From Fusobacteriaceae bacterium (GTDB lineage Bacteria > Fusobacteriota > Fusobacteriia > Fusobacteriales > Fusobacteriaceae), in the NCBI GenBank assembly GCA_017984315.1, contig JAGNZR010000011.1:1-32274 (forward strand): a DNA stretch of 32,274 nucleotides. Reading direction: 5' to 3'. Made by a program: the position numbers and the translations under genes. Of this stretch, positions 1,765 through 25,079 are shown piece by piece. A model generated the notes under the pieces. It ran no database searches and was not told the origin of the DNA. It saw only the letters and a list, made by a program, of their open reading frames with translations. The first letter of the stretch is position 1. The number at the start of each line of letters is the position of its first letter.

Positions 1765-4700
1765 CTAGTTTTTATAAGATATTTTAAAAGTAAAATTCAA
1801 TGGAGCATTGCTTGGAATTAGGTATTCAGCATGAGTACAAGCACCCCATGAATCATCACCACCAACGCCCATTTGTATTTTATTAATATTTATAACTGTA
1901 TAGTTAGGATTAGAGTTTAAATCATATAAATGAGCTGCAGACTCTAATTCATGGCATGTATAAGGGAGTACTGAACATTCAAAAGGCGTGATTGCAGAAA
2001 ATTTCAGTCCAATTTCTTCTTTATCAACTACTTCTAGCCATCTAACCTCAGTTTTATTCCCACACTCTTGAGGAATAACATACTGTGAAATAGATTCTTT
2101 AGCAGTAGAATTAAATATTCCTAATCTAGCTCCATGTTTTCTATCAATATAGCTCTCTTCAGGACCGTTTCCATACCACTTCATACTGCTATATTTATTA
2201 GGGACTTTAAATGAAATACCAAATACAGGGATTTCACTTAAAGAATTACACCCATCATAATTAAGTTCCACAATCATCTCACCTGTTGAATTTATTAGAT
2301 ATTTTAGATTACAAGTTATAATTGGTGATGTAGGAAGCTCGTATGTGTAGTTAATACATGCGTATAAAATCCCATCTATATCTACTTTGCTTAAATGAAT
2401 ATCTACACATTTTTGATAAAGAGATGCAATTTTCCATTGTGAATATCTAAAAGGCATCTTATTTCCTCTGTCATTGTCAGTAGGAGCTCTCCAGAAATTA
2501 GGAAGTATCGGTGAAGATAAAAATTCAATATTATTATACTTCATCGATACTATAGAACCATAAGATCTAGAGAAAATATGATGGAAGTTATCACCTTTAA
2601 TACCTATATTAATATCACAGTCTTCTATTAGAAGTTTAGCATCACTATTTTTTAGAGAGTTGTTAAAATCAGGGTTATTAGTTTCTGTTATTGAGTAGAC
2701 ATACTGCCCAAATGATATTTCATGCCCTTGCTCAGCCCACAATGTATCTTCCTTCAAAACGATGGACACTTCGTGAATATATTCCCCTACTATGCCTTGT
2801 AGTGCAAATGGAAGCTTAAACTCTCCTGTTGTAAGAGGTTGGAGATCAAAAATATATGGCTCTCCACTGCAAATAGAAATTCCGTCTCTTAAAACTCTCC
2901 ACTTAACATGATATTTATTTAAGTTTGTAAAAAGAGAGGTGTTTTTTATTATTACACTATCTAGTGTTGGTTTAACTTTAAAATCAGAAAAAAGTGCTTT
3001 TACCTCCTGCATTTTAGGTGATGGTTTTCTATCTCCATATACTAGACCATTTACACAAAAATTATAATCTGTAGGACGGTCATCATAATCTCCACCAAAA
3101 GCTAAATAATTTTCACCATTTTCTGCTGTTTTCATAAGAGACTGATCTATAAAATCCCAAATAAATCCACCTTGATATAATTGATATTTATCTTCTAATT
3201 CAGTATATTTATGAAGTGCACCATTTGAGTTTCCCATTGCATGAGAGTATTCACATGAGATAAAAGGTTTTGCAGGATTATTGTTTAAATACTCCTCAAT
3301 TTCACTCACTTTTGCATACATTCGACTCTCTACATCTGATGTATCATTAAATCTTCTATCCCAAAATACACCTTCATACTGTATAACTCTTGTTTTATCT
3401 CTACTTTTAAGCCATTTAGAAAGCTCATAAAGGATTCTTCCACCATATGCTTCATTTCCACATGACCAGATAACAATAGATGGGTGGTTCTTATCTCTTT
3501 CAAGCATAGAGATTCCTCTGTCAATAATAGAATTTAGCCATTTTTCATTATCATTAGGAACAGCATTTTCTGGAGAGCATTTTCCCATTTTTTGCCAAGT
3601 ACCATGAGTTTCAATATTTGCTTCATCAATAACATAAAGACCATACTCATCGCAAAGCTCATACCACCTAGAATTATTAGGGTAATGGGAAGTCCTTACA
3701 GCATTGAAATTATTAGCTTTTAAGAATTTTATGTCCCAAAGCATCTCCTCTTCTGAAATAACACGTCCGTTGTAACAAGAAAATTCATGACGGTTAACCC
3801 CTTTAAATACAACTCTTTTTCCATTAATTTTCATTATTTTGTCATTAATTTCAAATTTTCTAATCCCTATTTTTTGTGGAATAACTTCAATTATCTCATC
3901 AGTCTCTGAATTTTTTAAAATAATATAGCATGTATAAAGATTAGGAAACTCAGCACTCCAAAGATTTGGATTATTTATTGTTAAATCTAAAGTTACTTCA
4001 GTTTTAAAATTATTAGATGATATATTTTTAAGATTGTTATTAAAATAAACGTTACTCTCTGTTGCATTAATTAGAATATCTTTAGAGTCATAAATCTCTT
4101 GAATAACAGATATATTATTTTCTAATAAAGATTGAAAATATTGGAGAGATTTTGAATGTTCTAATTTTAACTTTGTTTTAATGTAAGCAGTAGAAAAACT
4201 GTCATTAAGCAGAGTCTTTATAAAGATATCATTAACATGCACTTTTGGTTTTGTATATAGATAAACATCACGAAAAATCCCGGAAAATCTCCAGAAGTCT
4301 TGATCTTCAAGCCAAGAACCGCTGCACCATTTGTGTACCTCTACAGCAACTGTATTTTCTCCATCTTTTATAAAAGGGGAGATATCAAATTCAGAAGGAG
4401 TAAAACTATCTTCAGAATACCCTATATAGTTTCCATTTATCCAAAGATAAAATGCAGATTCAACACCTTGTAAAGAGATATAAATAGAGCTTTTATCCCA
4501 ATTATCAGGGATAAAGATTTTTTTTACATACTGTCCTACTGGATTATAATCTTTTGGAATTTCAGGAGGGATAAGTTTATTGTGTCCATCCCATGGATAC
4601 ATGGTATTTACATAATGGGGTTTATCATAACCTTGAAGTTGAATGTGTGATGGAACAGTTATAGTATTCCAAGTGCTAATATCAAAATCCTCTTTATAAA

Positions 4701-6140: not shown

Positions 6141-6836
6141 ATGAGAATAGGTATTATAGGTGCTATGAGTGAAGAGGTATGTGAGTTAAAAGATATAATG
6201 ACGATAGAAACAGTGGAAGAGTTATTTGGATTTAAATACTTTGTTGGAAAACTTTTAGGTAAAAATATTGTTTTAGTAGAATCTGGTATTGGAAAAGTAA
6301 ATTCAGCAGTGTGCACTACTGTTTTAATAAAAAAATTTAATATCAGCAAAATTATTTTTACAGGAGTTGCAGGAGCAGTAGGAAGAACATTGAATATTGG
6401 AGATGTTGTAATTGGTTCAGAACTAATTGAACATGATTTTGACTGTACAGCATTTGGAATGCAGCCTGGAGTAATACCAAGAATGGATACATCTATTTTT
6501 AAATCAGATGAAAAATTAATAGAGATTGCTAAAAAAGCAGTTGTAAAAGTACTAGGGGAACATAGAACAAAAATTGGAGTTGTTGTGAGCGGTGATCAAT
6601 TTATAGCTAATAAGGAAAAAATACAATGGCTGGGAGATACTTTTAATGCTCAGTGCACAGAGATGGAAGGGGCATCAGTAGCACATGTATGTTATTTGGC
6701 TAAAGTTCCATTTATTATTTTAAGAGCAATTTCAGATAAAGCAGATGGTTCTGCACATATGGATTTTCCTAAATTTGTAGAATTAGCAGCAAAAAATTCT
6801 AAAAATGTAGTTGAAGAGATGCTTAAAGAGATATAA
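6141..6836 (+). CDS. mtnN: 5'-methylthioadenosine/S-adenosylhomocysteine nucleosidase
   Basis: The 231-residue cytoplasmic enzyme cleaves adenine from methylthioadenosine and S-adenosylhomocysteine, recycling by-products of methylation and polyamine synthesis. Visible family features are the N-terminal RIGIIGAMSEEV with the catalytic glutamate at 11/12, ESGIGKVNSA, the GVAGAVG loop, SGDQFIA, TEMEGAS (catalytic E176) and ISDKAD (catalytic D199). Length equals that of the E. coli enzyme. AAAGGAG lies eight bases before the ATG. It is the first gene of a same-strand cluster, with folC 40 bases downstream; the two have no obvious metabolic link beyond one-carbon and methyl metabolism. Confidence 0.95.
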   Translation: MRIGIIGAMSEEVCELKDIMTIETVEELFGFKYFVGKLLGKNIVLVESGIGKVNSAVCTTVLIKKFNISKIIFTGVAGAVGRTLNIGDVVIGSELIEHDFDCTAFGMQPGVIPRMDTSIFKSDEKLIEIAKKAVVKVLGEHRTKIGVVVSGDQFIANKEKIQWLGDTFNAQCTEMEGASVAHVCYLAKVPFIILRAISDKADGSAHMDFPKFVELAAKNSKNVVEEMLKEI

Positions 6837-6876
6837 AAAACAAAAATATAAAAATATAGACTTATAGGAGACAGTG

Positions 6877-8124
6877 ATGATTGAAAAAGTAACGCAAGAG
6901 CTTTATGACTATGGAATGTACGCGGAAAAAATCGGTTTAGAAAATATAAGGAAAATTTGTCAGGATTTAGGGAATCCACAAGATAAATTAAAAACTATAC
7001 ATATAGCTGGAACAAATGGTAAAGGGTCTACATCAACAACTGTTGAGACAATTTTATTGGAATCTGGATATAAGGTAGGTAAATATACTTCACCACATAT
7101 TTTGAAATTGAATGAAAGAATAGCTTTAAATGGAAAAGATATTAGCGATGATGATATAATTAAATATTATTATATAGTGAAAGAGGTTGTAAAAAAACAT
7201 AATATAAGACCGTCATATTTTGAAGTTATGACAGCTATGATGTACAAATATTTTGTTGATAATGGAGTTGAATATTTAGTATTAGAAACAGGATTAGGTG
7301 GAAGATTAGATTCAACAAATTTATCAAATGCAATAATTTCAGTAATAACTAATGTATCTAAAGATCATTGTGAGTTTTTAGGAGATACAATTGAAGAGAT
7401 AGCAAAAGAGAAATTAGGGATAGTAAAACCTGGATCCACTCTTATTATAGGGAGAAAAATAGACGCTTTAGTTAATAATGCTGAAATGAATAACCCTAAA
7501 AAGATAGTATATGTAGAAGATATTTATAGAGATGCAAAATATAAACTGAATTTTGAAAATTTTTCTACAGAAGTAGATATAAATGGTAATATCTTTGAAT
7601 TTTCACTGTTCGGTGAGTACCAATATAGCAATTTTTTAACAGCTTATGCAGTTCTAAAAGAGTTAGGTATTAGTGATGAAATTATAAAATCAGGTTGTAA
7701 AAAAGTTAAATGGCAATGTAGGTTTGAAGTTTTAAAAAGGGAAAAAATAGTGATATTAGACGGCGCACATAACATTGATGGTGTAGAAAAGTTAAAAATA
7801 ACATTATCAAAAGCTTTTAAACCTGAAGAAGTAACAATAATTACTTCAATTTTAAAAGATAAAGATAGAGAAAATATGGCTAAGTTATTAGAAGAGAGTT
7901 CACATGATATAATACTAACATCATTATCTGAAAACCAAAGAGGAACAACTGGTGAAGAGTTGCTGAAATTCTTTAATGGAAAACAAGGCAGCGTATCAGT
8001 AGAGGAAGATATTACTAAAGCTTATGCTAAAGCATTAAGTGGGAAAAGTAAAGTAATATTGATTTGTGGTTCTTTTTATCTTTTATCAAAATTTAAAGAG
8101 GTAATATTAAATGACAAAAAGTAG
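6877..8124 (+). CDS. folC: Folylpolyglutamate synthase / dihydrofolate synthase
   Basis: The 415-residue cytoplasmic ligase adds glutamate to folates, and in many bacteria also makes dihydrofolate from dihydropteroate. It is a Mur-ligase relative: P-loop GTNGKGS at 45-51, TSPH (71-74), LETGLGGRLDSTN (136-148), NVSKDHCEFLG (159-169), and DGAHN (295-299) in the C-terminal domain. TAGGAG at 6865-6870 is six bases before the ATG at 6877 and only three before an in-frame GTG at 6874, so the ATG is preferred. Its last 14 bases overlap the next gene, suggesting coupled translation. Whether it has both activities is not visible, since no separate folate gene is in the window. Confidence 0.93.
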   Translation: MIEKVTQELYDYGMYAEKIGLENIRKICQDLGNPQDKLKTIHIAGTNGKGSTSTTVETILLESGYKVGKYTSPHILKLNERIALNGKDISDDDIIKYYYIVKEVVKKHNIRPSYFEVMTAMMYKYFVDNGVEYLVLETGLGGRLDSTNLSNAIISVITNVSKDHCEFLGDTIEEIAKEKLGIVKPGSTLIIGRKIDALVNNAEMNNPKKIVYVEDIYRDAKYKLNFENFSTEVDINGNIFEFSLFGEYQYSNFLTAYAVLKELGISDEIIKSGCKKVKWQCRFEVLKREKIVILDGAHNIDGVEKLKITLSKAFKPEEVTIITSILKDKDRENMAKLLEESSHDIILTSLSENQRGTTGEELLKFFNGKQGSVSVEEDITKAYAKALSGKSKVILICGSFYLLSKFKEVILNDKK

Positions 8125-8413
8125 AAAGCAGTTAATGAAGGAGAGAAGACAAAATGTACTTCAGTTCTTATTGTCCCTTGTTTTATTATTTTTTTCATTT
8201 AATTATTATTTAAAAGTTGAAACAGAACTTACAGAAAGGATATTAATGGAGAGAAAGGAGATTTCACTTATAGATGAGCAGTTGTTAATCCGAAAAAAAG
8301 GGTTTTACAATGATAATACTTATTTAGGAAGATATGCCCTTGTAAAAAAAGAGTGGAGTGATAAAAGCACAGGAGGGGTAGAATTTAATGAATACAATGA
8401 AAAAAAGCATTAA
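8111..8413 (+). CDS. Small one-span membrane protein of unknown function
   Basis: I do not recognise this 100-residue protein. Its N-terminus is basic (MTKSRKQLMKERR), then comes one hydrophobic segment at about 18-34. A charged stretch of about 25 residues (VETELTERILMERKEISLID) that could form a short coiled coil follows, then YLGRYALVKKEW and a hydrophilic tail. That order (short cytoplasmic end, one span, extracytoplasmic helix) is the topology of the division proteins FtsB and DivIC, but identity is not established. The frame is supported by a good site (AGAGG, nine bases before the ATG) and by overlaps of 14 bases with folC and 26 bases with hprK. That packing is what a real operon member would show. 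Confidence 0.7.
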   Translation: MTKSRKQLMKERRQNVLQFLLSLVLLFFSFNYYLKVETELTERILMERKEISLIDEQLLIRKKGFYNDNTYLGRYALVKKEWSDKSTGGVEFNEYNEKKH

Positions 8414-10331
8414 GAGTGTTTTTCTTTCTGAGATTATTGAGAAATTAAATTTAACACCATTGAATAAAATTGAAGAGGATATTGAGATATTTAATTCTGG
8501 AATTTACAGAGTAGGTTATGAATTTGCTGGTTTTTTTCAATGCGAACTAGATGAATTACATAATTGCATACATATCATTGGGAAGAAAGAAAGTTTATAT
8601 TTAAGGAAACTACCTTTAGACATAAGAGAAGCTACATTAAAAAAATATTTTTCTTATCCTTTCCCTCTTATAATTGCTAGCTGTGATAGTGGTATTTCAG
8701 ATGAATTTTTATACTATGCTAAAAAAAATAGAAAAGTTGTTTTAAAATCTAATTTAAAGACAGTTGAGACAATAAGAGAATTAAAATTTTATCTTAGTAA
8801 AATTTTAGGCGAAGAGTTAATTATGGATGGATATGTCCTTTTAGAAATAGAGGGAGTAGGAGTTTTATTGACAGGGGATAATGATATAAAAGTAGGTGTT
8901 ACAGTAGAGCTTTTAGAAAGAGGGCATAAACTTATAAGTGATAATAATATCCTAGTTAGAAAAGATGATATGAATAATCTGATTGGATTTAATATGTTAA
9001 ATAATGTTTTAGAAAAAGTTGATTTTTTTCTAGAAAGTAACGGAAAAAAAATTGACATTACAAATCATTTTGGAATAAAATCAACGAGGACTAATAAAAG
9101 AATTGATATGATCATCGAGCTAGAGAGGTGGCAAGAGGATAAATTTTATGACCGACTTGGATTAGATGAGTATTATGAGAAAATATTGGATGTTAATACA
9201 CCCAAAATAACCCTTCCAGTAAAAAAAGGAAGAAATTTAGCTGTAATAATTGAATCTGGAGCAATGAATCGTAGATTAAAAAAAATGGGGGTGAACTCTG
9301 CACAATATTTTTGGACAGAGTCTAAAAAATTGATTCAGGAAAATAAAATGAAAAGAGATGATAAATCTAAAGAGGTAACAGGACTTCCATTAAGAAAATT
9401 AATTAATAAATTCGATTTAAAAGTTATAGTAGGGGAAGAATATATTGATGAAAAAAGAATAAAAATATCTAATATACATAAGCCTTCTTTGGCTTTATCA
9501 GGGTATTTTGACATGTACGAAGAGGAAGGGTACGACGGAATACAGATATTTTCAGAGGTAGAATTTAATTTTTTAGAAAATAAAATAAATCAAAATGAAA
9601 GAGAAAGGAATTTAAGAAGATATTTAAGTTATGATTTTCCATTGATAATAGTTACTTCTGAAGTGCAAGTTCCTGAATATTTTATAAAAAAAGTAAAAGA
9701 GTTTAATTTGGTTTTGGCCAGAACAAATTTAAAAAGATCTGCCCAGGTTGTAGCAATTTATAACTCATATTTAGAATATAAATTTGCACCAAGTATCTCT
9801 ATGCATGGAGTTTTTGTAGAACTTCATGGATTTGGAGTTTTGTTAACAGGAAAAAGTGGGATAGGTAAAAGTGAGACTGCTCTTGAACTTATCCATAGAG
9901 GGCATAGACTTGTTGCAGATGATGTAGTTAAATTTACAAAGGACCCAGCAGGAGATATTATAGGAAAGGCTGATAAACTCCCTTATTTTATGGAAGTAAG
10001 AGGATTGGGTATTATTGATGTAAAAACACTTTACGGGCTAGGTGCTGTAAGGATTGATAAAAGACTGGATATAATAATTGAATTGCAAGAGTCACTAACC
10101 AATGAAGAGTATTTAACTGAAATGGAATTTTCAAAAAAAATTGACGTTATTGGAGTCTCTTTTGATAAAGTATTATTATATATCTCTTCCGGAAGAAATG
10201 CCGCAGCAATGGTAGAAATAGCTGTAATGAACTTAATGGCAAAAAAATTAGGTTATGATTCTGAAAAAGCATATAAAGAAGGAATTTCTAGACTGAGTGT
10301 AGAGGACAAGGAAAGATTAGGGATACATTAA
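8388..10331 (+). CDS. hprK: Tandem HPr kinase/phosphorylase with an inactive-looking first copy
   Basis: HPr kinase phosphorylates and dephosphorylates the serine of the PTS protein HPr in response to metabolic state. Normal length is about 310 residues; this one has 647 and contains two full copies. Copy 2 (about 333-640) has everything expected: MHG with H473, P-loop GKSGIGKSE (488-496), HRLVADD (506-512), the signature MEVRGLGIID (535-544) and GRNAAAMVE (602-610). Copy 1 (about 1-315) aligns throughout but reads MDG for MHG, GDNDIKVGV for the P-loop, HKLISDN for HRLVADD, and LESNGKKID for MEVRGLGIID. It should not bind ATP in the usual way. AGGAGGGG lies nine bases before the ATG, and the frame is unbroken. 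No ptsH is in the window. Copy 1 may be regulatory or structural. Confidence 0.92.
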   Translation: MNTMKKSIKSVFLSEIIEKLNLTPLNKIEEDIEIFNSGIYRVGYEFAGFFQCELDELHNCIHIIGKKESLYLRKLPLDIREATLKKYFSYPFPLIIASCDSGISDEFLYYAKKNRKVVLKSNLKTVETIRELKFYLSKILGEELIMDGYVLLEIEGVGVLLTGDNDIKVGVTVELLERGHKLISDNNILVRKDDMNNLIGFNMLNNVLEKVDFFLESNGKKIDITNHFGIKSTRTNKRIDMIIELERWQEDKFYDRLGLDEYYEKILDVNTPKITLPVKKGRNLAVIIESGAMNRRLKKMGVNSAQYFWTESKKLIQENKMKRDDKSKEVTGLPLRKLINKFDLKVIVGEEYIDEKRIKISNIHKPSLALSGYFDMYEEEGYDGIQIFSEVEFNFLENKINQNERERNLRRYLSYDFPLIIVTSEVQVPEYFIKKVKEFNLVLARTNLKRSAQVVAIYNSYLEYKFAPSISMHGVFVELHGFGVLLTGKSGIGKSETALELIHRGHRLVADDVVKFTKDPAGDIIGKADKLPYFMEVRGLGIIDVKTLYGLGAVRIDKRLDIIIELQESLTNEEYLTEMEFSKKIDVIGVSFDKVLLYISSGRNAAAMVEIAVMNLMAKKLGYDSEKAYKEGISRLSVEDKERLGIH

Positions 10332-10344
10332 AGAGGAGTAAAGA

Positions 10345-11343
10345 ATGAAAATGAAAATTTTTGAAGAAGTAGTGAGAAAAATACACGAAAGCAAAAATAT
10401 TGTATTAACTACACATTTAAACCCTGACGGAGATGGAATTGGTGCAGTGATTGCATTACTTTTAGGATTAAATAAATATATAAAAAATAAAGGGTTAAAT
10501 GATAAGAGAATAAGAGTGATAATTGTTGATAATATCCCTAGTAACCTAAAGTTTTTGTTTGGATCTGAACTAATAGAAAAATATGAGAATTACAATACAA
10601 AATATTCTTCAGATTTATTAATAGCTTTAGATACAGGAACTTTAGAAAGAGTTGGAGATATAAAAAATATATCAAAGAATATATCAAAAAATATAATAAA
10701 TATAGACCACCATGTAAGCAATACAAATTACGGTATAATTAATTATATTGATTCTAAATGTGCCTCAACTTGTGAAATAATCTATGAACTATTAGAATTT
10801 ATGGATATAGAGATAGATGCTTTAATAGGGGAAGCTTTATATACTGGATTCATAAACGATACAGGAAATTTTAAACACTCTAATGTTTTACCTGAAACTT
10901 TTGAAAAAGCTTCAAAACTTATTGCTGCTGGTGTAGATAATACGAAAATAATAAGGGAGTTTTTGGACCGAAAAAAATATTCCGCTTTAAAGCTTTTTGG
11001 TCGTGCACTGGAGAGAGCAAATATAATAGAAGATAAAAAATTTATATATACATATATATCACAAACTGATTTTAAAGAATTTTGTGGAGATAAATTTGAT
11101 ACTGATGGGATTGTAGAGTTTATACTTCAATGTGATTTAGCAGAAACTTCTCTCTTCTTGAGAGAGGAGGAGAATGGAAGTATAAAGGGAAGTATGAGAA
11201 CTAAAAGTGATATTTTAGACCTAAATGATATTGTGGGAGTATTTTCAGGTGGTGGTCACAAGAAGGCAGCAGGATTCTCTTCAAAATTAAGTTGTCAGGA
11301 AATAGTAAAAAAAATAATGGAAATTTTAGAAAAAATAGAGTAG
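10345..11343 (+). CDS. nrnA: DHH/DHHA1 phosphoesterase, NrnA-type nanoRNase/pAp phosphatase
   Basis: The 332-residue cytoplasmic protein matches bifunctional oligoribonuclease/pAp phosphatase NrnA in length and layout. The DHH domain has the metal-binding HLNPDGDG (D28, D30), ALDTG (D96), and DHH itself at 121-123, followed by TGFINDTGNF. The C-terminal DHHA1 domain carries the substrate-binding GGGHKKAAGF (302-311). Expected roles are degrading two-to-five-base RNA ends and removing the 3' phosphate of pAp. A GAGGAG site is six bases upstream of the ATG, and the gene starts 13 bases after hprK. Related DHH proteins act on cyclic dinucleotides, so the exact substrate is inferred from length and the lack of extra domains. 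Confidence 0.88.
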   Translation: MKMKIFEEVVRKIHESKNIVLTTHLNPDGDGIGAVIALLLGLNKYIKNKGLNDKRIRVIIVDNIPSNLKFLFGSELIEKYENYNTKYSSDLLIALDTGTLERVGDIKNISKNISKNIINIDHHVSNTNYGIINYIDSKCASTCEIIYELLEFMDIEIDALIGEALYTGFINDTGNFKHSNVLPETFEKASKLIAAGVDNTKIIREFLDRKKYSALKLFGRALERANIIEDKKFIYTYISQTDFKEFCGDKFDTDGIVEFILQCDLAETSLFLREEENGSIKGSMRTKSDILDLNDIVGVFSGGGHKKAAGFSSKLSCQEIVKKIMEILEKIE

Positions 11344-19731: not shown

Positions 19732-21156
19732 ATGTTTAATAAAAAAGTATATGTAGAGAGAAGAGAAGAGTTATGTAAAATAATGAAAAAAGGGATAGGA
19801 GTGTTTTTAGGAAATGGAGATTCACCTAAAAATTATTTAGATAACTGCTATGAATTTTCTCAAGATTCAACATTTTTATACTACTTTGGATTAAATAGAG
19901 CTAACTTAGTTGCAGTAATAGATTTTTCAAATGGAGATACATATATTTCAGGAGTAGATTTTACATTAGATGATATGATTTGGATGGGTGAGCAAAAAAC
20001 AATTTTAGAGTGTTCTAAAGAATATGGAATAAATAAATTTATACAGGATAAAAAACTAAAAGAATTTATTTTAGATAAATCAGAGGGAACAGATGAAGAT
20101 GATGAGGATTACTACCAAGAGATCCTTTATATAGAGCCGTATAGGGCAGATTTAACAATAAAGTTAGCAGAACTTTTAGATATAGAGATTTCAGAGGTTT
20201 TAACATACTCCTCTCTAAAATTAAAAAAAGCTGTTATTCAACAAAGAAATATAAAGTCTCAAGAAGAGATAGTTGAGATAGAAAGAGCTGTAAACATCAC
20301 TAGAGAGATGCACTTAAAAGCTATGGAGATAATAAGACCAGATATTTATGAGTATGAAATAAAGGCAGAAGTGGAAAAAGTTGCTGAAAAATATAATTGT
20401 ACAACATCTTTTCAGACTATAGCAACGATACATGGAGAGACACTTCATAATCATAACTATAATAACCTTTTAAAAGAGGGAGATATACTGCTTTTAGATT
20501 GTGGTGCAAGAACAGAGCTGGGATATTGTGGAGATATGACAACAGTTATTCCTGTATCTGGAAAATTTAGTGAAAAACAAAAAGAGATATATGGAATTTT
20601 AATAGAGATGTTTGACGCTGCTGTATCTAAATTAAAACCTGAAGTTGAATATAGAGAAGCTTATTTAGCTTCATCTAAAGTTTTAATAGAGGGGATGAAA
20701 AGGTTAGGGATGTTAACAGGGCAAACAGAAGAGATATTAGAAAAAGGTGCTCATGCTCTGTTCTTCCCTCATGGACTGGGGCATATGCTGGGAATGGATG
20801 TACATGACTGTGAAAATCTAGGGGAAGAGTATGTTGGTTATGATGAAGGAAAGAGTAGAGATAAAAGGCCTGGACATGGTAGTCTAAGACTGGCTAGAAC
20901 TCTAAAAGTTGGACATGTATTTACAGTTGAACCTGGAATTTATTTTATACCTAGATTTATAGAAAACTGGAAATCAAAAGGATTATTTAAAGAGCATTTA
21001 AATTACTCAGAAATAGAAAAATATAGTGATTTTGGTGGAATGAGATATGAAGGGGATTTTGTAATAACAGAAGACTCTTCAAGAAGACTTGGTGATAGAA
21101 TGCCAAAATTATACACAGAAGTTGAAGAGTTAACAGGGAAAAATAAAAAATGTTAG
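19732..21156 (+). CDS. M24B family metallopeptidase, Xaa-Pro aminopeptidase
   Basis: The 474-residue cytoplasmic enzyme removes an N-terminal residue that precedes proline. An aminopeptidase P N-terminal domain (about 1-160, with FLYYFGLNRANLVAVI) is followed by the pita-bread catalytic domain. Metal ligands are visible as D256 in LDCGAR, D268 in YCGDMTT, H351 in FPHGLGH, E400 in TVEPGIY and E440 in RYEGDFV. The start is ATG 19732, five bases after AAGGAGG; an in-frame ATG at 19705 would lie in the hairpin. The gene is 40 bases after the ABC ATPase, and its end overlaps the malQ start by seven bases. It would complement the Opp transporter and the M19 dipeptidase in peptide use. Confidence 0.9.
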   Translation: MFNKKVYVERREELCKIMKKGIGVFLGNGDSPKNYLDNCYEFSQDSTFLYYFGLNRANLVAVIDFSNGDTYISGVDFTLDDMIWMGEQKTILECSKEYGINKFIQDKKLKEFILDKSEGTDEDDEDYYQEILYIEPYRADLTIKLAELLDIEISEVLTYSSLKLKKAVIQQRNIKSQEEIVEIERAVNITREMHLKAMEIIRPDIYEYEIKAEVEKVAEKYNCTTSFQTIATIHGETLHNHNYNNLLKEGDILLLDCGARTELGYCGDMTTVIPVSGKFSEKQKEIYGILIEMFDAAVSKLKPEVEYREAYLASSKVLIEGMKRLGMLTGQTEEILEKGAHALFFPHGLGHMLGMDVHDCENLGEEYVGYDEGKSRDKRPGHGSLRLARTLKVGHVFTVEPGIYFIPRFIENWKSKGLFKEHLNYSEIEKYSDFGGMRYEGDFVITEDSSRRLGDRMPKLYTEVEELTGKNKKC

Positions 21157-24100
21157 GGCGAAGTAGTGGGGTGCTTATGCATATAAGCTCTCTACCTAAT
21201 GATACAGGGATTGGAGATTTTGGAAAGAGTGCATATGAATTTATTGATTTTTTAAAAGAAGCAGGTCAAAGTTTGTGGCAAATTCTACCTTTAGGTCCAA
21301 CAGGGTATGAGGATTCCCCTTATCAATCTTTTTCATCTTTTGCAGGAAATCCATATTTTATTAATTTAGATTATCTTGTAGAAGAGGGTTTTTTGCACCT
21401 AAATGATTTAAGCAATTTAAAAGAAAAAAATAATGTAGATGTTGTAGATTATGGATTTATTTATAAAGAGAAAATGAATGTTTTAAGAAAAGCATTCAAT
21501 AATTTTTTAATATTTAATGCCAAAGGTGAAATTGAGGTTTTCAAAAAGGAAAACAGTTATTGGTTAGAAGATTATTCTCTTTATATGGCACTTAAAAAAA
21601 ATTTTAAGGATAAAATCTGGCTGCATTGGCCTAAAGAGTATAAAGATAGAGATAAAAATGCCCTTAAAAAAATAAAAGATGAGTTAAAAATAGAGATTGA
21701 GTATCAAAATTTTTTACAATACGAATTTTATAAGCAATGGAAAAATTTAAAGAAGTATGCCAATTTAAAAGGGATAAAAATAATAGGTGATATCCCTATA
21801 TTTGTGGCTTTAGATAGCTCTGATATATGGGCTAATAATGATATGTTTTTACTTGATAAAGATAAATCTCCTTTAAAAGTTTCTGGTTGTCCACCAGATG
21901 CTTTTAGTGAAGAGGGACAGTTATGGGGAAACCCTTTATATGACTGGTCTTTTTTGAAAAAAAACAGCTACTCTTGGTGGATAGAAAGAGTGAGATACTC
22001 CTTTAATCAATATGATATAGTGAGGATAGACCATTTTAGGGGGTTTGAATCTTACTGGGAGATTCCAGCAGATGCTGTTAATGCAAAAAATGGTAAATGG
22101 CAAAAAGGTCCAGGAATTGATTTTTTTAATACCCTAGAAAGAGCTTTAGGGAAAAAAGATATTATTGCAGAAGATCTAGGATTTTTAACACCTGATGTTA
22201 AAATGCTTTTAAGAAAAACTAAATTTCCTGGGATGAAAGTTTTACTTTTTGCTTTTGATTCTGAGCACGAAAGTGATTATCTACCTCATAAATATGATTT
22301 AAATTCAATAGCTTATGTAGGAACTCATGATAATGAAACTGTTGTTGGATGGTATGAAACTGTAAGCTTAAAAGATAAAAAATATTGTGATGAGTACTTA
22401 AAAACTATAAAGGGTGTTACATCTAAAGAGATAAATTGGAAATTTATAGAGGCGGCCTGGAGTAGTAAATCTGTGGTAGCAATAGCTCAAATTCAAGATT
22501 TTTTAGGGCTTAATAATCTAGCTAGGATGAATAAACCTTCAACAGAGAGTGGAAATTGGAGTTGGAGATTGAATAAAAAATTACTAACAAAAGAGTTAGC
22601 CAAGAGAATGAAAAAATTGACTGTAGATAATAGTAGAAAAGTAGATTTTGATGAAAAATATAATGTTAAAAGGAACACATTATTGGAGGGATCAAATATG
22701 AAATTGTCTGTAGAAGATATAAAAAAAGGGATAAATAAAAATTTACTTCAAGATTTTTCAACAAAATTGGAGTATGCAGAAAAACATGAAATATACCAAG
22801 CTTTAACAAAAACTATTTTAGACAAAATTAGTACTAATTGGGTAAATACAGCTGATAAATATCAAGAAAATAAGCAGGTTCACTATTTTTCTTCAGAGTT
22901 CTTAATGGGAAGAGCATTTGGGAATAATCTTATTAATCTTGGAATGATGGATAATGTAAAGCAAGCAATAAATGAACTGGGTATAGACTACAATATTATT
23001 GAAGAGAGTGAAGAGGATGCAGGAACAGGAAATGGTGGACTTGGAAGACTTGCAGCATGTTTTATTGAATCCCTAGCAACACTTAATTTACCAGGAATAG
23101 GTTACAGTATTAGATATAAAAATGGTATTTTTAATCAGAAGATAGAAAATGGTTATCAAGTAGAATATCCAGAAACATGGCTAAAATATGGGGATGCATG
23201 GTCTATAAAAAAATTAGGAGATGAAGTGATTGTAAATTTTAAAGATTTTTCAGTAAGAGCAATCCCTTATGATACACCTATTTTTGGTTATGGAACGAAC
23301 AATGTAAATACACTTAGATTATGGGAAGCAGCTCCAATGGTAGATTTTAATTATTCAGCTTTTAATGCACAAGATTATAACAGTGCTTTATATGAAGCTA
23401 ATAGAGTTGAAGATATCTCAAGAATACTTTATCCAAATGATTCAACTAATGAAGGGAAGAAACTTAGATTAAGACAGCAGTATTTCTTTGTTTCAGCTTC
23501 TTTGCAAGATATTGTAAAAAAATATAAAAGAGTACATGGAGATGATTTTAGCAAGTTTTCTAACTTGACAGTGATACAACTAAATGACACTCATCCAACA
23601 GTGGCAATTCCTGAGCTTATGAGAATATTGTGTGAGCAAGAGAGAATGTCATGGTATGAAGCTTGGGCAGTTGTTACTAAGACTTTTGCTTATACAAATC
23701 ATACAATTTTAGCTGAGGCATTAGAGAAATGGTGGATAGGTCTTTATGAGGAGATTTTACCTAATATTTATAATATAATCAGAAGAATAAATGAACAATT
23801 ATTGGGAGAGCTACGTACTATTTATCCAGACGACGGGGCTAAACACCATAGAATGGCTATAATACAAGGAGATTTAATTCATATGGCATGGCTTGCAATA
23901 TATGGAAGCTCATATGTAAATGGAGTTGCAGCCCTTCATACAGAGCTTTTAAAACATGAAGAGTTAAAAGAGTGGTATGAGTTATATCCAGAAAAATTTC
24001 AAAATAAAACAAACGGAATTACTCAGAGAAGATGGTTACTGCTTTCAAATCCAGAGTTATCAAAATTTATTACCTCTTTAATTGGTGATACATGGATAAA

Positions 24101-25079
24101 AGATCTTTCTCAACTTAAAAGATTAGAAGAGTATGCAAATGATAAAGATGTGTTAAATAAATTTATTGAAATAAAATCTGGTAAAAAATATGAACTTGCA
24201 AATTATTTAGAAAAAGCTCAAGGAGAAGTAATTAATACCAGTTCAATATTTGATGTTCAAGTTAAGAGATTGCATGAATATAAAAGACAGCTACTGAATA
24301 TATTCCATGTAATTGATCTTTATAATACATTGAAGCATGATCCTAATATTGATATGGCTCCTGTAACATATATTTTTGGTTCTAAAGCAGCACCTGGATA
24401 TAGAAGAGCTAAAGGGATAATTAAATTAATCAATGAAGTTGCAAAAAAAATAAATGAGGATCCTGTAATTAGTAAAAAAATTAAAGTTGTCTTTGTGGAA
24501 AATTATAGAGTCTCTTTAGCTCATCTGATTTTCCCAGCAGCAGATATTTCAGAGCAGATATCTACAGCAGGAAAAGAAGCTTCTGGAACTGGAAATATGA
24601 AGTTTATGCTAAATGGTGGATTGACATTGGGGACTTTAGATGGTGCTAATATAGAGATTGTTGAAGAAGCAGGAGCAGAGAATAATTTTATATTTGGTCT
24701 TACAGTAGAAGAGATAAATGAGATTAAAAAAATTGGTTATAACCCGTTAAACTATTATAATTCAGTTTCTGGGCTTAAAGCAGTTATAGACTCTTTAGTT
24801 GATGGAACATTTGATGATAATGGGAAAGGGTATTTTAGAGATATATACAACTCACTCCTTTATGGAACTGATTGGCATCAACCAGATGAATATTTTGTTT
24901 TAAAAGATTTTGAAGCCTATAGAAATATTCAAAAAATGGCTAATAATGCATATAAAGACAGAGAAGGATGGGCTAAAAAAGCTTGGTTCAATATTGCCAA
25001 TGCTGGAAAATTTTCATCAGATAGAACTATAGCACAGTATGCAAAAGAGATTTGGGATATTAAATCTGTAAAAATTTAA
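21150..25079 (+). CDS. malQ-glgP: Fused 4-alpha-glucanotransferase and glycogen/maltodextrin phosphorylase
   Basis: One unbroken frame of 1309 codons encodes two enzymes that are normally separate. Residues 1 to about 490 are MalQ (GH77), which moves glucan chains between maltodextrins: SPYQSFSSFAGNPYFI, GDIPIFVA, nucleophile D294 in RIDHFRGFE, acid/base E341 in IIAEDLGF, D394 in GTHDNE. Residues 517-1309 are GlgP (GT35), which releases glucose-1-phosphate: EDAGTGNGGLGRLAACF, IQLNDTHPT, and the pyridoxal-phosphate lysine at 1151 in GTGNMKF. The joint, about 491-516, is polar and shows no domain. The GlgP part begins at a methionine with its own ribosome binding site (22685-22690). Both halves have full family length. 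A lost stop codon or a sequencing error could also explain the joined frame. The start ATG overlaps the aminopeptidase stop. Confidence 0.9.
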   Translation: MLGRSSGVLMHISSLPNDTGIGDFGKSAYEFIDFLKEAGQSLWQILPLGPTGYEDSPYQSFSSFAGNPYFINLDYLVEEGFLHLNDLSNLKEKNNVDVVDYGFIYKEKMNVLRKAFNNFLIFNAKGEIEVFKKENSYWLEDYSLYMALKKNFKDKIWLHWPKEYKDRDKNALKKIKDELKIEIEYQNFLQYEFYKQWKNLKKYANLKGIKIIGDIPIFVALDSSDIWANNDMFLLDKDKSPLKVSGCPPDAFSEEGQLWGNPLYDWSFLKKNSYSWWIERVRYSFNQYDIVRIDHFRGFESYWEIPADAVNAKNGKWQKGPGIDFFNTLERALGKKDIIAEDLGFLTPDVKMLLRKTKFPGMKVLLFAFDSEHESDYLPHKYDLNSIAYVGTHDNETVVGWYETVSLKDKKYCDEYLKTIKGVTSKEINWKFIEAAWSSKSVVAIAQIQDFLGLNNLARMNKPSTESGNWSWRLNKKLLTKELAKRMKKLTVDNSRKVDFDEKYNVKRNTLLEGSNMKLSVEDIKKGINKNLLQDFSTKLEYAEKHEIYQALTKTILDKISTNWVNTADKYQENKQVHYFSSEFLMGRAFGNNLINLGMMDNVKQAINELGIDYNIIEESEEDAGTGNGGLGRLAACFIESLATLNLPGIGYSIRYKNGIFNQKIENGYQVEYPETWLKYGDAWSIKKLGDEVIVNFKDFSVRAIPYDTPIFGYGTNNVNTLRLWEAAPMVDFNYSAFNAQDYNSALYEANRVEDISRILYPNDSTNEGKKLRLRQQYFFVSASLQDIVKKYKRVHGDDFSKFSNLTVIQLNDTHPTVAIPELMRILCEQERMSWYEAWAVVTKTFAYTNHTILAEALEKWWIGLYEEILPNIYNIIRRINEQLLGELRTIYPDDGAKHHRMAIIQGDLIHMAWLAIYGSSYVNGVAALHTELLKHEELKEWYELYPEKFQNKTNGITQRRWLLLSNPELSKFITSLIGDTWIKDLSQLKRLEEYANDKDVLNKFIEIKSGKKYELANYLEKAQGEVINTSSIFDVQVKRLHEYKRQLLNIFHVIDLYNTLKHDPNIDMAPVTYIFGSKAAPGYRRAKGIIKLINEVAKKINEDPVISKKIKVVFVENYRVSLAHLIFPAADISEQISTAGKEASGTGNMKFMLNGGLTLGTLDGANIEIVEEAGAENNFIFGLTVEEINEIKKIGYNPLNYYNSVSGLKAVIDSLVDGTFDDNGKGYFRDIYNSLLYGTDWHQPDEYFVLKDFEAYRNIQKMANNAYKDREGWAKKAWFNIANAGKFSSDRTIAQYAKEIWDIKSVKI
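22685..22700 (+). promoter_or_regulatory. Internal ribosome binding site and ATG for glgP inside the fused frame
   Basis: GGAGGG (22685-22690) is followed after seven bases by ATG (22698-22700), in frame with the upstream malQ part. Starting here gives a 793-residue GlgP, the normal length for the family. It looks like the original glgP start, still intact, so free GlgP may be made as well as the fusion. Confidence 0.7.

What the first reader, a model, noticed from the sequence alone, without database searches (positions are those of the whole stretch)
8388..10331. Double HPr kinase whose first half looks catalytically dead
Two HprK copies lie head to tail in one 647-residue chain. Copy 2 keeps the P-loop, the catalytic histidine, the paired aspartates and the signature motif. 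Copy 1 aligns along its full length but has changed all of them: MDG for MHG, GDNDIKVGV for GKSGIGKSE, SDN for ADD, and no MEVRGLG. HprK is normally a hexamer of about 310-residue subunits, so this chain must assemble differently. A retained inactive copy suggests allosteric, scaffolding or HPr-binding work. I think long HprK entries may exist in other fusobacteria but could not check.
Basis: partly seen in the sequence, partly recalled or inferred. Interest (0 to 1): 0.68.

Follow-up and report, generated by a model that had tools for sequence, protein, structure and literature searches.

The report
Two half-dead kinase copies, one active site
Fusobacteria carry a sugar-control kinase as two fused copies that have each lost the opposite half of the active site, so the seemingly dead first copy probably supplies the missing half for the second rather than being a leftover.

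Summary
In detail: window 8388-10331 encodes one 647-aa chain with two full-length HprK copies, and copy 1 has lost the catalytic motifs. It is not an assembly error: 69 of 98 Fusobacteriota genomes have HprK and 64 (this one included) carry the intact tandem. The F. nucleatum tandem was reported in 2008 (PMC2405797).

The reading changes. HprK active sites lie between two adjacent subunits: one gives His140, P-loop, Asp179 and Glu204; the other gives Arg245, K3 loop and C-terminal helix (PMC9399212). In the 64 tandems copy 2 keeps the first face and copy 1 the second, and each has lost most of the other: His140 64/0, Ser162 64/0 (copy 2/copy 1); Arg245 64/4, Pro266 64/0, Glu235 64/0 (copy 1/copy 2). 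Genome G067 carries a 269-aa version at the same gene position, keeping copy 1's Arg245/K3/helix part and copy 2's P-loop part. Both copies are under purifying selection. Ser46 of one HPr paralogue tracks the kinase: present in 68 of 69 HprK genomes, Asn in 20 of 29 without.

Best explanation: the copies divided one composite site, giving one live and one degenerate site per pair. Geometry and activity are inferred, not measured.

The parts
8388..10331 (+). tandem HprK gene, 647 aa, stop included
8388..9350 (+). copy 1 (residues 1-321): N domain plus C domain; supplies the Arg245/K3-loop/C-terminal-helix face
   Evidence: fold prediction matches 1ko7 at Z 25.1, rmsd 3.8, 282 aligned
8874..8897 (+). 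degenerate P-loop of copy 1 (residues 163-170, GDNDIKVG)
   Evidence: G160, S162 and E163 columns canonical in 0 of 64 copies 1; K/R kept at 161 in 59 of 64
9123..9161 (+). copy 1 ERWQEDKFYDRLG (residues 246-258), with the Arg245 equivalent R256
   Evidence: E235 64/64, W237 63/64, R245 64/64, L246 64/64, G247 64/64 in copy 1
9216..9236 (+). copy 1 K3 loop PVKKGRN (residues 277-283)
   Evidence: P266, G270, R271 64/64 and N272 60/64 in copy 1
9297..9350 (+). copy 1 C-terminal helix (residues 304-321)
   Evidence: predicted helix; F297 and I305 64/64
9351..10328 (+). copy 2 (residues 322-647): supplies the catalytic face
9804..9806 (+). copy 2 His473, equivalent of His140
   Evidence: 64/64 in copy 2, 0/64 in copy 1
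9849..9875 (+). copy 2 P-loop GKSGIGKSE (residues 488-496)
   Evidence: G160, K161, S162, E163 64/64
9915..9923 (+). copy 2 ADD (residues 510-512), D178/D179 equivalents
   Evidence: D178 and D179 64/64 in copy 2; 56/64 and 8/64 in copy 1
9990..10010 (+). copy 2 signature MEVRGLG (residues 535-541)
   Evidence: E204, R206, G207, G209 64/64 in copy 2
10086..10133 (+). copy 2 stretch that replaces ExWxxDKxxDRLG (residues 567-582), no Arg245 equivalent
   Evidence: E235 0/64, W237 0/64, R245 4/64 in copy 2
10179..10199 (+). copy 2 altered K3 loop YISSGRN (residues 598-604)
   Evidence: P266 0/64; Tyr266 56/64, Ser269 58/64 newly conserved

Best explanation
This is the HPr(Ser46) kinase/phosphorylase of Fusobacteriota in a form where an ancient tandem duplication divided one composite active site between the two copies. 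In ordinary HprK every subunit plays both parts: its P-loop face is completed by Arg245, the K3 loop and the C-terminal helix of a neighbour. In the tandem, copy 2 provides the P-loop face (nucleotide, Mg, general base) and copy 1 the Arg245/K3/C-helix face that closes over the site and holds HPr. So a copy 1-copy 2 pair makes one live site and one degenerate site, and three chains probably build a pseudo-hexamer with three live sites. Shown here: the reciprocal residue pattern, its conservation, selection on both copies, the natural short version, the co-occurrence with HPr Ser46. From the literature: which residues come from the neighbouring subunit. Inferred: that copies 1 and 2 pair in this way, whether within one chain or between chains, the hexamer, and the enzyme activity. 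The confidence given covers the composite site whichever chain the partner copy belongs to.
For: (1) Reciprocal loss in 64 intact tandems. Copy 2/copy 1: His140 64/0, G160 64/0, S162 64/0, E163 64/0, D179 64/8, E204 64/11. Copy 1/copy 2: E235 64/0, W237 63/0, R245 64/4, L246 64/0, P266 64/0, L273 64/0. (2) Over 92 columns conserved in 9 single HprKs, mean retention is 0.44 (copy 1) and 0.74 (copy 2) in columns 128-232, and 0.76 and 0.40 in columns 233-310; one column is kept by copy 1 only and 20 by copy 2 only in the first part, 12 and 1 in the second. (3) Published structure account: Arg245, Thr294, Leu301, Ile305 come from one subunit and His140', Ser157', Asp179', Glu204' from the other, and a neighbour's K3 loop packs at the P-loop (PMC9399212, passages). 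(4) phmmer against S. xylosus HprK 1ko7 reports chain residues 335-562 (copy 2) and 234-309 (copy 1) as its two stretches. (5) G067 (L078:1612-2421, 269 aa) lies between the same neighbours (Pfs-like nucleosidase upstream, NrnA-like DHH gene downstream) and has kept copy 1's DRLG...IPIKKGRD...helix and copy 2's SVHG/GKSGVGKSE/ADD/MEVRGLG, while losing both N domains, copy 1's P-loop to signature, and copy 2's K3 loop and C helix. (6) Copy 2's C-terminal helix is cut short (18 or fewer residues from E278 on) in 8 of 64 chains from three genera. (7) Purifying selection everywhere, strongest in copy 2 core (dN/dS 0.015) with copy 1 core at 0.048 and copy 1 neighbour part at 0.030 (11 non-overlapping close pairs). 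(8) Copies 1 and copies 2 form one clade each (100/99 and 99/97), 29 of 64 chains sampled. (9) HPr: Ser46 in 68 of 69 HprK genomes, Asn46 in 20 of 29 HprK-less genomes.
Against: No measured structure or activity. AlphaFold2 of the whole chain has pTM 0.42, so the copy 1-copy 2 arrangement is not predicted. Leu301, one of the four listed neighbour residues, is not kept in copy 1 (Ser 39, Thr 23 of 64), and Arg180 and Leu199 of the catalytic face are not kept in copy 2. The K3 loop is only partly lost in copy 2: Gly270, Arg271 64/64. Which subunit supplies Arg245 rests on one paper's passages; the original structure papers were not held. The short form is a single genome, 88% complete. Nine reference HprKs include five close relatives. 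The HPr link has exceptions (G081 keeps Ser46-type paralogues, G076 has an additional one, G060 has no HPr found) and 28 of the 29 HprK-less genomes belong to one family, so independent losses are few.
Confidence: 0.85

Rival explanations
1. One reading: copy 1 is a dead pseudokinase kept as an allosteric, scaffolding or docking module; copy 2 is a self-sufficient kinase.
For: Copy 1 has lost His140, P-loop Ser162 and most of the signature; copy 1 keeps the HprK fold in prediction.
Against: Copy 2 lacks Arg245, Pro266, E235 and W237 in at least 60 of 64 chains, so it is not a complete kinase by the published account. A pure scaffold would not be expected to keep just the neighbour-face residues invariant. 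G067 has deleted most of copy 1 except that face.
Confidence: 0.07
2. A sub-case of the best explanation: the composite reading is right, but the live site forms between different chains (copy 2 of one chain with copy 1 of another), for instance in rings of alternating chains.
For: Residue patterns cannot tell intra- from inter-chain pairing; whole-chain pTM is only 0.42. The short form of G067 leaves either possible.
Against: Nothing decisive. A short linker (about 11 residues between predicted helices) keeps the copies of one chain close together.
Confidence: 0.25
3. Division of labour in separate sites: copy 2 does the kinase reaction, copy 1 does the phosphorylase reaction or HPr docking on its own.
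For: The K3 loop, kept best in copy 1, is described as important for dephosphorylation.
Against: Copy 1 has no intact P-loop in any of 64 chains, and HprK is described as using one active site for both reactions (PMC9399212, passage).
Confidence: 0.04
4. Relic or artefact: copy 1 is decaying, or the assembly joined two genes.
For: Fragmented or broken copies occur in four genomes (G013, G056, G060, G061).
Against: 64 intact tandems, dN/dS 0.03-0.10 across copy 1, single clades for each copy.
Confidence: 0.01

Closest known systems
Single-chain HprK/P of Bacillota and Mycoplasma (S. xylosus 1ko7, L. casei 1jb1/1kkl/1kkm, M. pneumoniae 1knx)
   Same: Fold and the catalytic motifs, taken over both copies together; active sites between adjacent subunits (PMC9399212, passages)
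   Different: There each subunit plays both parts; here each copy keeps one part only
Fusobacterium nucleatum tandem HPrK noted by Comas et al. 2008 (PMC2405797)
   Same: Fusion of two HPrK domains in tandem; very probably the same gene family
   Different: The passages seen give the fusion only, without loss patterns, a mechanism, or the short form; the paper was read by word search, not in full
ABC exporters with one consensus and one degenerate ATP site; mammalian adenylyl cyclase C1/C2 (both recalled, no call)
   Same: Ancestral symmetric pair with two composite sites became one live and one degenerate site after duplication
   Different: Unrelated families; no regulatory role for the degenerate site is shown here

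Membership tests
HPr(Ser) kinase/phosphorylase (TIGR00679, PF02603+PF07475) | Whole-protein score over the curated cut-off of 240 bits | tested here: met
   483 bits for the chain; copy 2 alone 281; copy 1 alone 213, below the cut-off
HPr(Ser) kinase/phosphorylase (TIGR00679, PF02603+PF07475) | Walker A, His140, Asp178/179, Glu204 signature | tested here: met
   Met by copy 2 in 64 of 64 chains; not met by copy 1
HPr(Ser) kinase/phosphorylase (TIGR00679, PF02603+PF07475) | Arg245 loop and K3 loop contributed by the neighbouring subunit | tested here: met
   Residues met by copy 1 in 64 of 64 chains (Arg245, Pro266, Gly270, Arg271); copy 2 lacks Arg245 in 60 and Pro266 in 64. That they act on copy 2 was not tested
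HPr(Ser) kinase/phosphorylase (TIGR00679, PF02603+PF07475) | One subunit carries both faces of the site | tested here: not met
   Neither copy has both faces in the 64 chains. So it is filed as a variant, not as the standard form
HPr(Ser) kinase/phosphorylase (TIGR00679, PF02603+PF07475) | Homohexamer, D3 | not testable with these tools
   Whole-chain model pTM 0.42
HPr(Ser) kinase/phosphorylase (TIGR00679, PF02603+PF07475) | Phosphorylates Ser46 of HPr | tested here: inconclusive
   Indirect only: Ser46 of the NGKSIMGLM-type HPr in 68 of 69 HprK genomes, Asn in 20 of 29 without HprK, Ser kept in G081
Pseudokinase module (considered) | Catalytic residues lost while the partner is complete by itself | tested here: not met
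   Partner copy 2 is not complete: Arg245 4/64, Pro266 0/64

The most novel reading that the evidence does not exclude
The second, degenerate site (copy 1's altered P-loop facing copy 2's altered K3 loop) has been turned into a built-in regulatory pocket, so the tandem kinase has three catalytic and three sensor sites in place of six identical ones. Support: newly conserved residues on that side (copy 2 Tyr266 56/64, Ser269 58/64, Ala273 60/64, Met276 59/64; copy 1 Gly163 58/64, Asn195 63/64) and copy 1 core dN/dS of 0.048. Against: G067 has discarded most of it, and eight chains have lost copy 2's C helix.
Probability: 0.25. Interest if true: 0.75.

Novelty: new variant of a known kind. Interest (0 to 1): 0.62.

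Why it matters
It separates, by natural evolution, the two roles every HprK subunit plays at once. The neighbour residues (Arg245, K3 loop) can be tested in one chain without touching the P-loop partner, and the cooperativity of HprK can be asked with three live sites rather than six. The 269-aa form of G067 looks like a minimal HprK made by nature. It also warns against calling a domain dead when its family has active sites between subunits. The paired HPr Ser46/Asn46 pattern ties the enzyme to its substrate in a Gram-negative phylum where no genome of 98 has a CcpA above the curated cut-off.

Tried and rejected
Whole-chain AlphaFold2 did not give the relative placement of the copies (pTM 0.42), so no interface was read from it. 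The first dN/dS run used 369 pairs, many with saturated dS; it was replaced by 11 non-overlapping close pairs. A survey of HprK outside the phylum failed, so whether other phyla have such tandems was not tested. Paper searches for the tandem or its mechanism gave Comas 2008 as the only paper seen on the Fusobacterium tandem; the library holds open-licence papers only. Papers by kind of reading: PMC2405797, PMC8004850, PMC9399212, PMC11204831, PMC13055401, PMC7758060 by passages from word searches; all others as listings only. The permutation figure (1e-5) is the floor of 100,000 shuffles over neighbouring, non-independent columns and is meant as a description. Genomes dropped before the 64-chain count: G013, G056, G060, G061 (fragments or broken frames) and G067 (short form), 5 of 69. 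The tree used 29 of the 64 chains. HPr loci: three of the 70 loci gave no HPr frame by its motif (L136, L139, L150) and were left out of that alignment.

Full report
What is there. The window holds an ORF of 647 aa at 8388-10331 (+) with two head-to-tail HprK copies. Upstream lie a nucleoside-phosphorylase-superfamily gene (6141-6836), a FolC-like gene (6874-8124) and a small unassigned ORF (8111-8413) that overlaps its start; downstream is a NrnA-like DHH gene (10345-11343). The genome is fusobacterial: the nearest named relatives are MAG and genome records labelled Fusobacteriaceae and Cetobacterium.

How general. Of 98 Fusobacteriota genomes, 69 have PF07475. The intact tandem (600 aa or more) is present in 64 of these, the window included; four more are fragments or broken frames (G013, G056, G060, G061) and one (G067) is a short form. 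The 29 genomes without HprK include 28 of one family (f4), in which G067 and the four genomes of g25 keep it. Comas et al. 2008 reported the tandem for F. nucleatum (PMC2405797, passage). In a tree of 29 chains plus 9 single HprKs, all copies 1 form one clade (100/99) and all copies 2 another (99/97), so the split predates the sampled radiation.

The pattern. With L. casei/E. faecalis numbering, copy 2 keeps His140, Gly160, Lys161, Ser162, Glu163, Asp178, Asp179, Glu204 and Arg206 in 64 of 64 chains. Copy 1 keeps them in 0, 0, 39, 0, 0, 56, 8, 11 and about 2 of 64. In the other direction copy 1 keeps Glu235 (64), Trp237 (63), Arg245 (64), Leu246 (64), Gly247 (64), Pro266 (64), Leu273 (64), with copy 2 at 0, 0, 4, 0, 5, 0 and 0. 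Columns conserved in single HprKs split the same way along the sequence: 20 columns kept only by copy 2 and one only by copy 1 before position 233, one and 12 after it. Some columns are kept by both (Gly155, Gly193, Gly218, Gly270, Arg271, Glu278) and probably hold the fold or loop.

Why this is one site, not two. Passages of PMC9399212 say that one HPr contacts two adjacent HprK subunits, one through the catalytic site and the other through its C-terminal helix; that Arg245 comes from the other subunit; and that a neighbour's K3 loop sits at the P-loop. The list of site residues there (Arg245, Thr294, Leu301, Ile305 from one subunit; His140', Ser157', Asp179', Arg180', Ile198', Leu199', Glu204' from the other) was taken as an independent test. 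Copy 1 keeps letters seen in single HprKs at Arg245 (1.00), Thr294 (0.95) and Ile305 (1.00) but not Leu301 (0.00). Copy 2 keeps His140, Ser157, Asp179, Glu204 (1.00 each) and Ile198 (0.98) but not Arg180 (0.11) or Leu199 (0.00). Means: catalytic face 0.16 (copy 1) and 0.73 (copy 2); neighbour face 0.74 and 0.23. PMC13055401 describes the hexamer as D3 (passage). If the site lay across a three-fold axis, alternating copies could not pair up; so the residue pattern predicts a two-fold pair. That step is inference.

A natural deletion. G067 carries a 269-aa HprK (L078:1612-2421). It sits between the same kinds of neighbours, a Pfs-like nucleosidase (275-973) and a NrnA-like DHH gene (2418-3437); these two names come from reading the translations against the window's genes, not from a family search. 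Its first part matches the copy 1 profile at positions 241-321 and its second part the copy 2 profile at 149-289. It lacks both N domains, copy 1's stretch from P-loop to signature, and copy 2's K3 loop and C helix. What remains is the neighbour face of copy 1 and the catalytic face of copy 2. This is one genome of 88% completeness, so an assembly slip is not excluded, but the frame is open throughout. Copy 2's C helix has also been cut short in 8 of 64 chains from three genera.

Selection. In 11 non-overlapping close pairs, pooled dN/dS is 0.101, 0.048 and 0.030 for copy 1's N domain, core and neighbour part, and 0.056, 0.015 and 0.022 for copy 2's. Mean pairwise identity over the chains shows the reciprocal: copy 1 core 0.47, neighbour part 0.63; copy 2 core 0.74, neighbour part 0.53. 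So copy 1 is not evolving neutrally.

Substrate. Fusobacteriota have two main HPr types. The one with the NG[KR]SIMGLM context is found by pattern in 67 of 98 genomes, all of them HprK-positive. G097, HprK-positive, has DAKSIMGI; G060 has no HPr found. Among 29 HprK-less genomes, 20 have a paralogue of this type with Asn in place of Ser46. G081 keeps Ser in its paralogues and G076 has a further Ser paralogue; seven have a single HPr of the other or an uncertain type and one has none. The second HPr type mostly keeps a Ser there with or without HprK (Ala in G064, G091 and G092), so it is not informative. This supports Ser46 kinase function, with few independent losses behind it.

Structure. AlphaFold2 of copy 1 (pLDDT 81.4, pTM 0.60) matches 1ko7 at Z 25.1, rmsd 3.8, 282 aligned, so copy 1 is predicted to keep the whole fold. 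The whole-chain model (pLDDT 73.9, pTM 0.42) does not place the copies.

Verdict. The most likely mechanism is one composite active site shared by two copies that have each lost the other's part. Tandem HprK is known; the reciprocal loss, the short form and the HPr Ser46/Asn46 match were found in no paper of the searches listed.

Noticed in passing
L078:1612-2421 (genome G067): A 269-aa HprK without both N domains, apparently the tandem trimmed to one catalytic and one neighbour part, at the orthologous gene position.
   Followed up: yes
L123, L155-L173, L192-L204 (HPr loci): HPr Ser46 replaced by Asn in 20 genomes that lack HprK; Ser kept in the tandem-HprK genomes.
   Followed up: partly
98 Fusobacteriota genomes: No genome has a CcpA above TIGR01481's cut-off, so what reads P-Ser-HPr is unclear; G048 (100% complete, tandem HprK) has no match at all.
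   Followed up: no
window 21150-25079: A 1309-aa fusion of a GH77 4-alpha-glucanotransferase with a glycogen-type carbohydrate phosphorylase.
   Followed up: no
G031:C1:105640-105831 and G033:C2:163792-163932: Weak third HprK-like P-loop matches (E 8e-4 and 6e-4, below the cut-off) in two genomes.
   Followed up: no
G056 (L076): HprK reading frame broken by two in-frame stops and split into 303 and 157 aa; genome 62% complete, so a pseudogene or an assembly fault.
   Followed up: no
copy 1 P-loop columns, 64 chains: The degenerate P-loop of copy 1 has its own conserved pattern (Gly155 64/64, Lys or Arg161 59/64, Gly163 58/64) rather than random decay.
   Followed up: partly
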